Below, one piece after another: positions 38,584-41,167 of a DNA stretch of 41,167 bases. The stretch is taken from positions 1-41,167 of the forward strand of contig JAGAAL010000044.1 of assembly GCA_017615245.1 (NCBI GenBank), in the 5' to 3' direction. How positions within the stretch are numbered: position 1 is the first letter of the stretch; the number at the start of each line of letters is the position of its first letter. The notes beneath the pieces were generated by a model. The model saw nothing but the letters and a program-made list of their open reading frames with translations, made no database searches and had not been told where the DNA came from. The stretch is from Bacteroidaceae bacterium (lineage in GTDB: Bacteria; Bacteroidota; Bacteroidia; Bacteroidales; Bacteroidaceae). Both the position numbers and the translations under genes were made by a program.

Positions 38584-38610
38584 CGGCTGAATATGTAAAT
38601 GCTTGTAATA

Positions 38611-38928
38611 ATGAATGCAGATAAGAATCGAGTGCTGAATCTCATTCGTACAACAGTACGGGAAAAAGAGCCGGAAGCGCAGATCATATTATATGGTTCC
38701 AGAGCCCGTGGTGATTACCACGAAGGTTCCGATTGGGATGTTATCATCATTGTCAACAAGCCTAATATGGAATTTAAAGAACGAGGTAATCTGAGCTATG
38801 AAGTGTGGGATAAAGGTTTAGATTTAGGAGCGACTATTAATGCTATTGAATACACTCAAAAGCAATGGGATTCCGCACCTCCTTCTTTATTCAAGCACAA
38901 TGTTCTTAAAGATGCGATTTACTTATGA
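38611..38928 (+). CDS. MNT-type nucleotidyltransferase antitoxin
   Basis: A 105-aa minimal nucleotidyltransferase. The active-site pattern GSx10DxD is present in YGSRARGDYHEGSDWDVIIIV (about residues 28-48). Proteins of this type partner HEPN toxins; MntA of a studied pair neutralises its toxin by adding AMP to a Tyr. Two in-frame ATGs, 38599 and 38611, follow the promoter; 38611 gives the more typical N-terminus (MNADKNRVLNLIR). The stop overlaps the ATG of the HEPN gene by 4 nt. The pair stands alone next to repeat-rich non-coding DNA, which is a common setting for mobile toxin-antitoxin modules. Confidence 0.88.
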   Translation: MNADKNRVLNLIRTTVREKEPEAQIILYGSRARGDYHEGSDWDVIIIVNKPNMEFKERGNLSYEVWDKGLDLGATINAIEYTQKQWDSAPPSLFKHNVLKDAIYL

Positions 38929-39329
38929 GTTTAAGCCAAGAAGAACGAAAAGCCGTAGTTGATTATCGATTGGAAAAAGCAGAATCAACATTTGTTGAAG
39001 CCCAAAAGGTTTCTACATTGGATTTGTGGAACAATGCAGCCAATAGATTGTATTATTCATTATACTATGCTGCAACAGCTTTGTTGATAGCAGATCAACA
39101 TCAATGTCATACTCATTCTGGTATGCTTACCCTGATGAATCTGCATTATGTAAAGACCGGGAAGTTGTCAGCAGAAGATGGCCGTTTGCTAAGACGTCTG
39201 TTTACGTTACGACATGAAGGCGATTATGAAGATTTTGTGGAAGTAACAAAAGAAGAGATATTACAGGCAACCCCCGAAGTTAGGGCATTGTTAGACAAAC
39301 TCAAACATTTGCTCCCTTCTTCCCTCTAA
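38925..39329 (+). CDS. HEPN-domain protein, probable RNase toxin partner
   Basis: A 134-aa all-helical HEPN protein (UPF0332-like). Helix 1-2 holds DYRLEKAESTFVEAQ and the middle carries LWNNAANRLYYSLYYAATALLIA. The likely active region is RRLFTLRHEGDYEDF (about 88-102), containing an R-x5-H and an HxxxY arrangement close to the Rx4-6H signature of HEPN RNases, with a Tyr that could be the AMPylation target. It is coupled to the MNT gene by an ATGA overlap, which argues for joint control. Toxicity is inferred from family and context. Confidence 0.85.
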   Translation: MSLSQEERKAVVDYRLEKAESTFVEAQKVSTLDLWNNAANRLYYSLYYAATALLIADQHQCHTHSGMLTLMNLHYVKTGKLSAEDGRLLRRLFTLRHEGDYEDFVEVTKEEILQATPEVRALLDKLKHLLPSSL

Positions 39330-39340
39330 ACTCTAAACTC

Positions 39341-39355
39341 GTGAGCACAGCTCAC
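39341..39355 (+). terminator. Hairpin after the HEPN gene, possible terminator
   Basis: GTGAGC (39341-39346) and GCTCAC (39350-39355) form a perfect 6-bp stem with a 3-nt loop, 11 nt after the HEPN stop. No T-run follows. Downstream to about 39410 lies a degenerate CTATAAAC-type repeat. Confidence 0.4.
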
Positions 39356-39487
39356 AACAACTATAAACGAAAAAACTGACTATAAACTATAAACAATAAA
39401 CTTTAAACTGAATTTTGCCTATGGGCTAAGATAGATACGATGCATTTGCATCAGGGACATATAGGATGAACATCCACTTTGATTCTT

Positions 39488-39628
39488 GTTTCGGACAATT
39501 GGGGAATTGAAAGAAGCATTCAAGAACTGAAGTAGATAGTTCACGCTGTTTGGCGTGGGCATTTACTCGTTTAAGAATGCAAGGTTATCCCCAATACCTC
39601 CGAAACGTAGACGAAGTAATTTGTCCAC
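39488..39628 (+). ncRNA. Long structured RNA leader with two competing folds
   Basis: In the 340-nt gap before the BspA-like gene, GTTTCGGACAATTGGGG (39488-39504) pairs with CCCCAATACCTCCGAAAC (39589-39606), giving 15 bp around a small internal loop. Nested inside are GCATTC/GAATGC (39516-39521, 39575-39580), AAC/GTT, AGTA/TACT and an 8-bp apical stem GTTCACGC/GCGTGGGC (39539-39546, 39553-39560). All stack into one long, interrupted hairpin of 119 nt. A rival helix uses 39555-39570 (GTGGGCATTTACTCGT) with 39611-39628 (ending TTTGTCCAC), about 15 bp, and is followed by a T-rich run (TTTTCTTGT). The two folds cannot coexist. It may be a switch, an attenuator, or an independent RNA. Confidence 0.6.
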
Positions 39629-39669
39629 GTTTTCTTGTACTATTCATTAACAACTAAAACATAAAGATT

Positions 39670-41167
39670 ATGAAGAATATATTACTTTTACTCATGATGT
39701 TGTTGCTGCCGATGGCGGCAAGTGCGTATGACGTAGAGATAGGCGGCATCTACTATGATGTCGTTTCAAAAGCCAAGGTCGCAGAAGTAACCTTTGGTGA
39801 AAAAAAGTACAGCGGAGACATTGTTATACCCTCAACGATTGAATATGAAGGAGTATTATGCGATGTCAAATTTATTGGAGGAGGAGCATTTACAGATTGT
39901 GACGGTCTTGTTTCGCTCAAGCTAAATGAAGGCATTGAAACTATAAAGTCGGGAGGAATACAAGTTGTTCGGAATTTGAAGTCGGTGACAATACCAAGGA
40001 GCCTAAAGACAATCGAGGAATGGAATTTCACATATGCTGAAGGTATGAATGTTTATATCTCGGATTTGGAAAGCTGGTGTCACATGACATTTCATAATAA
40101 TAACCTGCTTAATGGTGCTGGACATTTATATATAAACAACACAGAGATAAGTGATTTGATTTTACCAGGGAATTTTGAATGGATAAGCGACCGAGCGTTC
40201 TCTGGATGTGCAAACATCAAAAGCGTCACGATTGAGGAGGGAATAAGAGTGATCGGAAACTCTGCATTTGATGGCTGTCCGCAACTTGCCACAGTCTCTT
40301 TTCCTGCAAGCATTGAGTCTATCGGAAGCTCGGCATTTGATGGCTGTCCGCAACTTGCCACAGTCTCTTTTCCTGCAAGCATTGAGTCTATCAAGTCTTT
40401 TGCTTTTGCCCATTGTCCCGAATTAACAAATGTAAGTCTGCCACATGTTCAGGAACTTGGCAATTATGTTTTTGGAGAATGCAGCAAACTACAACACATT
40501 ACGCTGCCAAATGACCTGAATCAGATTAGTATGGGAATGTTCTCGTTTTGCACAAGTTTGACCGATCTGTCATTTCTTTCTAATATTATTACAATCGGGG
40601 AGAATGCTTTTGATGGATGTACAGGTCTGAGGTCTATTGATTTACCAAACAGTGTTGTTCAAATTGGGCGTGTGGCTTTTGCGGGATGCACAAATGTTGA
40701 GTCTATCTTATTACCAAGTTCTGTAAATATGATAGACGCTCAAGCCTTTGCCGATTGCAAAAAAATAAAGGATGTTTATTGCTATGCCAAAAATATTCCT
40801 CAAACTGAGGGAGATATTTTCGCAGGTTCTTATATTGAGTATTCAACACTTCATGTTCCTGTTGCTTCCATTGATGACTATAAGTCAACAGCCCCTTGGA
40901 GCGATTTTAAGACTATTGTAGGAATTACAGAGACAGAACCAATGACATATAAATTGATATATATGGTAGATGGTGAAGAGTATAGGGCTTATGATGTAGA
41001 AGATGGTGCGTCTATTATACCAGAAACATCGCCCACTAAAGACGGGTATACATTCTCTGGATGGATTAATCTTCCAGAAACCATGCCAGCACATGATGTA
41101 ATAATCACAGGGTACTTCGTCAATAGTCATAATAATTCTGATCATGAATATGTGGATCTAGGACTCC
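39670..41167 (+). CDS. BspA-like leucine-rich-repeat surface protein, truncated by the window edge
   Basis: At least 499 codons, open to the end of the window. Residues 1-19 form a signal peptide (LLLLMMLLLPMAASA-like). The body is a run of about 23-residue BspA/TpLRR (LRR_5) repeats, each with the IGxxAFxGCxxL-type core, for example SAFDGCPQLATVSFPASIES and NAFDGCTGLRSIDLPNSVVQ. From about residue 427 comes an InlB/Listeria-Bacteroides B-repeat (YKLIYMVDGEEYRAYDVEDG, DGYTFSGW). The last residues, HEYVDLGL, resemble the opening of the Fibrobacter/Prevotella paralogous (FISUMP-like) domain. Such proteins are adhesins or surface binders. The start at 39670 is set by the signal peptide; the structured leader lies upstream. 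Confidence 0.88.
   Translation, partial: MKNILLLLMMLLLPMAASAYDVEIGGIYYDVVSKAKVAEVTFGEKKYSGDIVIPSTIEYEGVLCDVKFIGGGAFTDCDGLVSLKLNEGIETIKSGGIQVVRNLKSVTIPRSLKTIEEWNFTYAEGMNVYISDLESWCHMTFHNNNLLNGAGHLYINNTEISDLILPGNFEWISDRAFSGCANIKSVTIEEGIRVIGNSAFDGCPQLATVSFPASIESIGSSAFDGCPQLATVSFPASIESIKSFAFAHCPELTNVSLPHVQELGNYVFGECSKLQHITLPNDLNQISMGMFSFCTSLTDLSFLSNIITIGENAFDGCTGLRSIDLPNSVVQIGRVAFAGCTNVESILLPSSVNMIDAQAFADCKKIKDVYCYAKNIPQTEGDIFAGSYIEYSTLHVPVASIDDYKSTAPWSDFKTIVGITETEPMTYKLIYMVDGEEYRAYDVEDGASIIPETSPTKDGYTFSGWINLPETMPAHDVIITGYFVNSHNNSDHEYVDLGL
40264..40392 (+). repeat. 69-bp tandem duplication inside the LRR gene
   Basis: Two identical 60-nt blocks, 40264-40323 and 40333-40392, lie at a 69-nt period, exactly 23 codons, one LRR unit. 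The 9-nt linker differs from the sequence before the first copy at two bases. Identity at the DNA level points to a recent duplication that kept the frame. Confidence 0.9.

What the first reader, a model, noticed from the sequence alone, without database searches (positions are those of the whole stretch)
39488..39628. Long nested RNA hairpin with a rival terminator-like helix before the BspA-like gene
The 119-nt element folds end to end: 15 bp at the base, several nested mid stems and an 8-bp apical stem. A second helix of about 15 bp would tear open the apical and middle stems and is followed by a T-rich run. Mutually exclusive folds next to a surface-adhesin gene suggest a switchable leader (riboswitch, attenuator or protein-binding leader). 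An independent RNA with a 6S-like long interrupted hairpin is the alternative. I do not recognise it as a named Rfam family.
Basis: partly seen in the sequence, partly recalled or inferred. Interest (0 to 1): 0.78.

Follow-up and report, generated by a model that had tools for sequence, protein, structure and literature searches.

The report
Likely RNA switch before exported-protein genes
The RNA hairpin in front of this surface-protein gene belongs to a family, not found in the Rfam catalogue, of probable on/off switches that sit before many exported-protein genes in Bacteroidota, and near relatives begin with a one-to-three-codon reading frame.

Summary
The hairpin is real (z -5.8, 0 of 200 shuffles as stable), and so is the rival helix. 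Covariance models find relatives, own genome included, in 143 of 301 family genomes, 70 of 247 drawn from the order and 16 of 296 from the phylum. No Rfam 15 family reaches its gathering score. In 102 copies the fold has 551 doubly compensated cells against 166 in shuffles. Four segments re-pair: in 100 distant copies 1:2, 2:3 and 3:4 are partner-specific (z -9.5 to -18.1) and non-cognate combinations are not. The match ends a median 64 nt before a start codon; 77 of 87 adjacent genes have signal-peptide-like N-termini against 80 of 309 nearby ORFs. Copies of the window's family open with an ultrashort uORF (82 of 85 stop after 0-2 codons); it was found in 40 of 102 distant copies. I read it as a conserved attenuator. 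Signal and uORF role are unknown; no expression data exist here.

The parts
39421..39429 (+). ultrashort uORF ATG GGC TAA (Met-Gly-stop)
   Evidence: read directly; of 101 copies 85 have ATG at this alignment column and 82 of the 85 stop in frame after 0-2 sense codons
39464..39475 (+). small 5' hairpin GGATGAACATCC; many other copies carry GAAGCGTTAGCTT here
   Evidence: read directly; listing; paired in the folds
39476..39488 (+). segment 1 (ACTTTGATTCTTG), pairs with segment 2
   Evidence: prefix folds pair segment 2 with 39476-39486 while the 3' end lies at 39540-39564; S1xS2 permutation z -9.5 in distant copies, -2.3 in copies of the window's family
39490..39495 (+). helix P1, 5' strand (partner 39599-39604)
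   Evidence: all 6 pairs have changes on both sides, 88.5% of cells paired
39499..39505 (+). helix P2, 5' strand TTGGGGA (partner 39588-39594 TCCCCAA)
   Evidence: 5 of 7 pairs have changes on both sides, 99.0% of cells paired
39516..39521 (+). helix P3, 5' strand GCATTC (partner 39575-39580 GAATGC)
   Evidence: 6 of 6 pairs have changes on both sides, 95.1% of cells paired
39522..39534 (+). segment 2 (AAGAACTGAAGTA), pairs with segment 1 or with bases after 39560
39539..39546 (+). apical helix P5, 5' strand GTTCACGC
   Evidence: 99.8% of cells paired; P5a x S3head z -13.5 in distant copies
39553..39574 (+). segment 3: P5 3' strand GCGTGGGC plus ATTTACTCGTTTAA; shared by the antiterminator (2:3) and the terminator (3:4)
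   Evidence: S3xS4 z -18.1 in 100 distant copies, -7.1 in 99 copies of the window's family
39583..39598 (+). GGU/ACC stem closing a loop that holds the P2 3' strand (pseudoknot-like)
   Evidence: 100% of cells paired; UA 93 / CG 9 at one of its three pairs
39605..39612 (+). local terminator hairpin, 5' arm ACGTAGAC, with a nearly invariant A.C mismatch
   Evidence: 98 of 100 copies keep A.C; 4 of 7 pairs have changes on both sides; not better than shuffled in distant copies
39610..39630 (+). segment 4: 3' arm shared by helix 3:4 and the local hairpin
39630..39633 (+). U-run after segment 4 (candidate termination site)
   Evidence: read directly; a T-run follows in most copies displayed; L160 is one without it
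39670..41166 (+). downstream gene: BspA-type LRR protein with a signal-peptide-like N-terminus, cut by the contig end
   Evidence: LRR_5 E 1.7e-85; ORF open at the window end

Best explanation
The segment is the 5' leader of the BspA-like gene and a transcription attenuator. Shown by comparison: four segments can pair 1:2, 2:3 or 3:4. Helix 2:3 sits at the tip of a long hairpin (P1-P5); helix 3:4 runs straight into a U-run. Inferred: as RNA polymerase moves, 1:2 forms first. If segment 2 then swaps to segment 3, the long hairpin forms and transcription reads into the gene (ON). If 1:2 is held, segment 3 is free to pair with segment 4 and transcription ends near 39630-39635 (OFF). In the window's family a ribosome on the one-to-three-codon uORF, about 45-55 nt upstream of segment 1, is the likeliest input, by opening or covering the 5' region; in copies without a uORF the input must be something else, for example a protein or ligand bound to the P2/GGU-ACC core. 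The targets are mainly exported proteins, so the switch would set output of surface and periplasmic proteins.
For: Fold: 96.6% of cells paired, 24 of 37 pairs with double-sided changes, 551 such cells against 166 in shuffles and 52-95 with slid partners. Partner-specific complementarity: in 100 distant copies S1xS2 z -9.5, S2xS3tail -11.3, P5axS3head -13.5, S3xS4 -18.1, each 0 of 2000 permutations; six non-cognate combinations gave z -1.8 to +1.7. In 99 copies of the window's family: S3xS4 -7.1, S2xS3tail -6.4, P5axS3head -4.2, S1xS2 only -2.3 (25 of 2000); the six non-cognate ones -1.3 to +2.1. Placement: 100 of 103 copies have a downstream sense ORF, median 64 nt from the match end, 85 of 103 within 20-130 nt. 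TAnnTTTG box within 90 nt upstream of the uORF in 51 of 85 (shuffle mean 3.9, max 8), and in 0 of 87 gaps between U-run and gene. Prefix folds of the window show segment 2 moving from 39476-39486 to 39564-39572. S2 pairs with the S1 region in 101 of 102 prefix folds of each set. uORF: 82 of 85 stop within 0-2 sense codons; 2 and 22 of 85 in the other frames; shuffle mean 21, max 33.
Against: No expression, probing or termination data. Within the window's family 3:4 is 99.6% paired but has no double-sided change, and shuffles give 99.5%; S3head x S4end alone gives z -0.4 there, so support rests on the outer part and on distant copies. These copies also carry a local hairpin on the same 3' arm, which could terminate even in the ON fold. 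In full minimum-energy folds 3:4 appears in only 2 of 102 and 5 of 102 copies, and segment 4 is mostly paired elsewhere (67 and 76 of 102); forcing 3:4 costs 19.1 and 16.9 kcal/mol on average, so the OFF state needs kinetics or a factor. The uORF is not universal: 40 of 102 distant copies against a shuffle mean of 17.7, max 32. It lies too far upstream for one ribosome to cover segment 1 directly (inference). The window copy has no TAnnTTTG box in 39101-39480. Permutation tests do not correct for relatedness, although the non-cognate pairs share that relatedness. The signal-peptide rule is home-made and the background ORFs were called mechanically.
Confidence: 0.72

Rival explanations
1. Free-standing small RNA with its own promoter and terminator that happens to lie before genes and acts in trans, as FopS/GibS do.
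For: It has terminator-like hairpins, often an upstream promoter box, and is multi-copy like FopS.
Against: Position is steady relative to a start codon (median 64 nt) and 0 of 87 gaps hold a TAnnTTTG box for the gene. FopS is described as a single-stranded 5' stretch plus terminator hairpin and as deposited in Rfam, and no FopS or GibS match appeared in the Rfam scans.
Confidence: 0.12
2. Ligand-binding riboswitch whose aptamer is the P1-P3 plus P2/GGU-ACC core, with the uORF incidental.
For: Conserved pseudoknot-like core and near-invariant internal stretches; core elements recur where no uORF is seen.
Against: Downstream genes share export, not a pathway: 65 Pfam families among 86 proteins, LRR_5 in 19, dockerin in 7. 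The uORF frame signal in the window's family would be unexplained.
Confidence: 0.2
3. Protein-binding leader (processive antitermination or repression) in which a trans factor recognises the long hairpin.
For: Long conserved hairpin, strong conservation of P5, very broad, mostly exported target set.
Against: Does not by itself explain the partner-specific 1:2, 2:3 and 3:4 exchange. No linked regulator was found by the one look made: small HTH genes lie near the element in 5 of 198 loci.
Confidence: 0.25
4. Mobile palindromic repeat (MITE/REP-like) with no regulatory role.
For: Dispersed, multi-copy, also folds on the minus strand.
Against: Copies are diverged yet keep pairing by compensatory change, mostly face into a gene at a set distance, and keep alternative helices in register.
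Confidence: 0.03

Closest known systems
trp-type leader attenuators (1:2 + 3:4 against 2:3; described from memory)
   Same: Four segments with mutually exclusive pairing, terminator helix 3:4 ending in a U-run, short ORF at the 5' end (in the window's family).
   Different: uORF of mostly one to three codons without a shared set of regulatory codons, about 45-55 nt from segment 1; the antiterminator is embedded in a long pseudoknot-like hairpin; targets are unrelated, mostly exported proteins; 62 of 102 distant copies show no such uORF.
FopS / GibS sRNAs of Bacteroides thetaiotaomicron (PMC11697453, passages seen)
   Same: Multi-copy RNA family in Bacteroidaceae with an intrinsic terminator.
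   Different: FopS is described as a single-stranded 5' stretch plus terminator that represses SusC-like mRNAs in trans; this is a structured leader next to a gene.
Flavo-1 (RF01705; named in PMC2864571 and PMC9723704)
   Same: Structured RNA motif widespread in Bacteroidetes.
   Different: No Flavo-1 match in the Rfam scans made, including 20 distant loci at E up to 1.
Palindromic Bacteroidetes candidates HMP2_4205, HMP2_1065, HMP2_1032 (PMC8040213, section read)
   Same: Bacteroidetes RNAs with predicted terminators, 80-132 bp.
   Different: Reported near TPR genes, RuvA and TonB.

Membership tests
trp-type transcription attenuator | mutually exclusive 1:2/3:4 and 2:3 helices, both conserved | tested here: met
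   partner-specific in distant copies, weaker within the window's family; 3:4 alone inconclusive by pair counting in the family
trp-type transcription attenuator | terminator helix followed by a U-run, upstream of the gene | tested here: met
   by sequence only:
trp-type transcription attenuator | translated leader ORF with codons for the sensed amino acid that overlap segment 1 | tested here: not met
   uORF has 0-2 varied sense codons after ATG and ends upstream of segment 1; seen in 40 of 102 distant copies
trp-type transcription attenuator | condition-dependent termination in vivo | not testable with these tools
   no expression data
Any Rfam 15 family | match at the gathering score | tested here: not met
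   none at gathering in the window or 20 further loci. With relaxed limits one search gave two weak overlaps of the 3' end (mir-368, 15.6 bits against 58; Plastid-psbA-1, 17.5 against 54.3, other strand); matches lay away from the element
FopS sRNA | single-stranded seed region plus terminator; Rfam model said to be deposited | tested here: not met
   structure differs; no such match. I did not check that the model is in this Rfam copy
6S RNA | 6S covariance model match | tested here: not met
Riboswitch | direct ligand binding | not testable with these tools
   no binding data
REP/MITE mobile repeat | placement independent of gene orientation | tested here: not met
   downstream sense ORF within 20-130 nt in 85 of 103 copies; no random-position control was run

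The most novel reading that the evidence does not exclude
A Bacteroidota-wide attenuator class in which, in the window's family, an AUG-stop or two-to-three-codon ORF reports translation initiation itself rather than an amino acid, and gates expression of a regulon of exported proteins.
Probability: 0.33. Interest if true: 0.92.

Novelty: new variant of a known kind. Interest (0 to 1): 0.8.

Why it matters
If right, one RNA switch family that Rfam 15 does not recognise sits in front of many secreted and surface proteins in a major gut and environmental phylum. Control of such proteins in Bacteroidota is mostly discussed through transcription factors, invertible promoters and sRNAs (general knowledge). 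The start-stop uORF would be a clean, testable case of a leader that could sense ribosome loading rather than an amino acid.

Tried and rejected
Pairing of 5' GGACA with UGUCC of segment 4, which the window's minimum-energy fold uses in place of the local terminator hairpin: no partner specificity (S0xS4 z +1.2 and +0.7), and outer bases change without compensation, so I do not count it as conserved.

A conserved leader peptide MNIHF (ATG at 39466): read by eye in several copies, but the window copy lacks its stop codon and other copies put a hairpin of different sequence there, so treated as structure.

6S-like RNA, FopS and Flavo-1: no such match in the Rfam scans. Phage or plasmid spread: no match in the phage or plasmid collections, and none of an exact 26-base pattern in viral contigs.

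Weak model hits (below about 45 bits) were not trusted, because antisense readings of true elements score 26-31 bits. The first family tally, 180 of 301 at E 0.001, was replaced by 143 of 301 at 1e-8. E-values of both models are rough (short calibration). The negative control, 0 of 16 genomes of other groups at E 0.01, is weak because that set holds no positive control.

Rows dropped: from A1 the partial or deleted copies L013, L014/L007 and L018 and the three 25-29 bp matches L009, L019, L026; two antisense rows of A2; two duplicate copies (L141:5421, L127); L114's 56-aa ORF from A3; cores at least 90% alike. The 80 family regions and 60 order regions came from the strongest listed hits, not from all.

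Full report
Names. That the window's family is Bacteroidaceae (in the wide sense that includes Prevotella) and its phylum Bacteroidota is my inference from the BspA-type gene, the TAnnTTTG promoter type and named records that hold a copy: a Prevotellaceae MAG (L028, 128.1 bits), and more weakly a Bacteroidetes MAG (L032, 58.6 bits) and an uncultured Bacteroides (L068, 55.3 bits).

Check. The element folds as described: -58.5 kcal/mol, z -5.8, 0 of 200 shuffles as stable. The rival helix pairs 39553-39560 with 39623-39630 and can extend outward; it ends at TTTTC. The downstream gene encodes a BspA-type LRR protein (LRR_5, E 1.7e-85). Rfam 15 has no match at the gathering score in the window; two weak overlaps in 371 nt (E 4.4 and 8.7, far below gathering) are not meaningful.

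Relatives. The window's own incomplete genome (62% complete) holds one confident copy; a second R1 hit of 34.9 bits is not trusted. By DNA, 9 of 17 genomes of the genus, own included, match at E 0.001, but the only match of one (G014) is a 25-bp stretch by the start codon; one genome (G004) has eight confident copies. Twenty copies gave alignment A1, where 11 of 37 predicted pairs already had double-sided changes, and model R1. A model from 102 copies (A4, R2) finds E at most 1e-8, own genome included, in 143 of 301 family genomes and 20 of 30 genera, in 70 of 247 genomes of the order draw (55 of 174 genera) and in 16 of 296 of the phylum draw, so it is sparse outside the order. Counts of 10 matches in one family genome and 12 in two order genomes equal the number of candidates scored there, so they may be lower bounds.

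Structure. In A4 the named fold (P1, P2, P3, P5, GGU/ACC, local terminator) has 96.6% of cells paired, 24 of 37 pairs with double-sided changes and 551 such cells; shuffles give 166 and slid partners 52-95. A4 was fitted to the R1 structure, which leans towards P2, P3, P5 and the local terminator, but P1 and GGU/ACC were not in R1. Mutual information over all column pairs, on an alignment whose core was R1-guided, ranks P3, P2 and P1 pairs at the top and also finds the GGU/ACC pair. P2's 3' strand lies in the loop closed by GGU/ACC, so the two together form a pseudoknot-like unit.

The alternative helix. Within the window's family, helix 3:4 is 99.6% paired, but shuffles give 99.5% and no pair has a double-sided change, so that test is inconclusive. 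I therefore compared duplex energies of each copy's own segments with those of other copies. In 100 dereplicated distant copies (A5), cognate pairs exceed all 2000 permutations: S1xS2 z -9.5, S2xS3tail -11.3, P5axS3head -13.5, S3xS4 -18.1. Non-cognate combinations S1xS4, S2xS4, P5axS4, P2axS4, P2axS3 and S1xP2a lie between -1.8 and +1.7. In 99 copies of the window's family the cognate values are -2.3 (25 of 2000 permutations as low), -6.4, -4.2 and -7.1, with S3tail x S4beg -4.4 but S3head x S4end -0.4; the six non-cognate ones lie between -1.3 and +2.1. Eight further combinations with the 5' region gave no support in A5 (-0.4 to +1.6); in A4 hp5xS2 (-4.6) and hp5xS3 (-3.3) did, hp5 overlapping segment 1, and hp5xS4 was worse than permuted (+3.5). 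Examples of changed but still pairing arms are L227 (GGGGTGTTCC with GGAACACCC) and L277 (GTGTGTTCC with GGTTCACAC, two U.U mismatches). The local terminator hairpin is better than shuffled in the window's family (-6.33 against -2.53) and not in distant copies (-2.23 against -2.12). I therefore take helix 3:4 as the terminator common to the wider group and the local hairpin as a family-level addition.

Kinetics. Prefix folds of the window show segment 2 paired with 39476-39486 while the 3' end lies at 39540-39564, then handed to 39564-39572. S2 pairs with the S1 region in 101 of 102 prefix folds of each set. By the end of segment 3 it has moved to the S3 tail in 61 of 102 (A4) and 89 of 102 (A5). 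The full minimum-energy fold keeps P5 in 100 of 102 and 96 of 102, shows 3:4 in only 2 and 5, and pairs segment 4 with other partners in most; forcing 3:4 costs 19.1 and 16.9 kcal/mol on average. In isolation the ON fold is therefore the ground state, and OFF must come from kinetics or a factor. These are energy-model results only.

Placement and targets. Of 103 copies, 100 have a downstream sense ORF, median 64 nt from the end of the match, 85 of 103 within 20-130 nt. Of 87 unique genes within 130 nt, 77 have a signal-peptide-like N-terminus by a home-made rule, against 80 of 309 other ORFs in the same loci. Distant copies: 58 of 79. Pfam on 86 of the 87: LRR_5 in 19, dockerin in 7, and 65 families in all. 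The TAnnTTTG promoter box starts within 90 nt upstream of the uORF in 51 of 85 copies (27 of the 51 at 31-37 nt; shuffle mean 3.9, max 8), and in 0 of 87 gaps between U-run and gene. The window copy has no such box in 39101-39480, so its start site is unknown.

The uORF. At the start of the conserved region (TGCCTATG), 85 of 101 copies have ATG in the aligned column; 82 of these stop in frame after 0-2 sense codons, 27 of them at once (ATG TAA or ATG TAG). The other frames give 2 and 22 of 85; shuffles of the following bases give a mean of 21 and a maximum of 33. Stops occur at different codons through different sequences (ATG AAG CAT TGA, ATG GAC AGA TAA), which argues for selection on the frame. 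With a looser, alignment-free definition the counts are 89 of 102 in A4 (shuffle mean 15.0, max 26) and 40 of 102 in A5 (shuffle mean 17.7, max 32). The uORF is centred on the window's family and cannot be the universal sensor.

Literature. Searches listed no paper whose title or abstract start describes this leader; several lists were cut (20 of 24, 20 of 29, 12 of 365 and 12 of 41 papers shown). Beyond listings I saw passages of PMC11697453, PMC8040213, PMC9723704, PMC7366714 and PMC2864571 and one full section each of PMC8040213 and PMC9723704. PMC8040213 reports palindromic Bacteroidetes candidate RNAs whose sequences I could not compare, so an earlier sighting is possible. The Bacteroidetes promoter consensus, the trp model and ribosome footprint sizes are from memory.

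Verdict. The attenuator architecture is well supported by comparison; termination, the signal and the uORF's role are inferred.

Noticed in passing
L007 / L014 (G012:C2:90484-90650): A natural copy lacks the equivalent of 39556-39593 (3' side of the long hairpin) but keeps the terminator arm, so the ON fold should not form there (inference).
   Followed up: no
L147 (G299:C96:5500-16000): Three copies within about 5 kb, each before a different gene with a signal-peptide-like start.
   Followed up: partly
L267 (1170-1315 and 2295-2440): Two equally scoring copies about 1.1 kb apart on the same strand, a possible recent tandem duplication.
   Followed up: no
L203, L290, L294, L297 and L286: Small HTH-like proteins of about 70 aa follow the element, 1-11 nt after the match in four of the five; regulated gene or possible trans factor. 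The HTH label is by eye.
   Followed up: partly
window 38599-39329: Nucleotidyltransferase/HEPN gene pair just upstream (NTP_transf_2 and HEPN); L020 aligns from at least 39000 through the leader to 39638 and then diverges.
   Followed up: partly
window 39609 and 39626 (alignment columns 188/205): A nearly invariant A.C mismatch (98 of 100) in the local terminator hairpin; the same C pairs with G in helix 3:4, which may be why it is kept.
   Followed up: partly
L165, L166, L174, L177, L183: The uORF ATG is replaced by ATA with an in-frame stop still close by, hinting at non-AUG initiation or relaxed selection.
   Followed up: no
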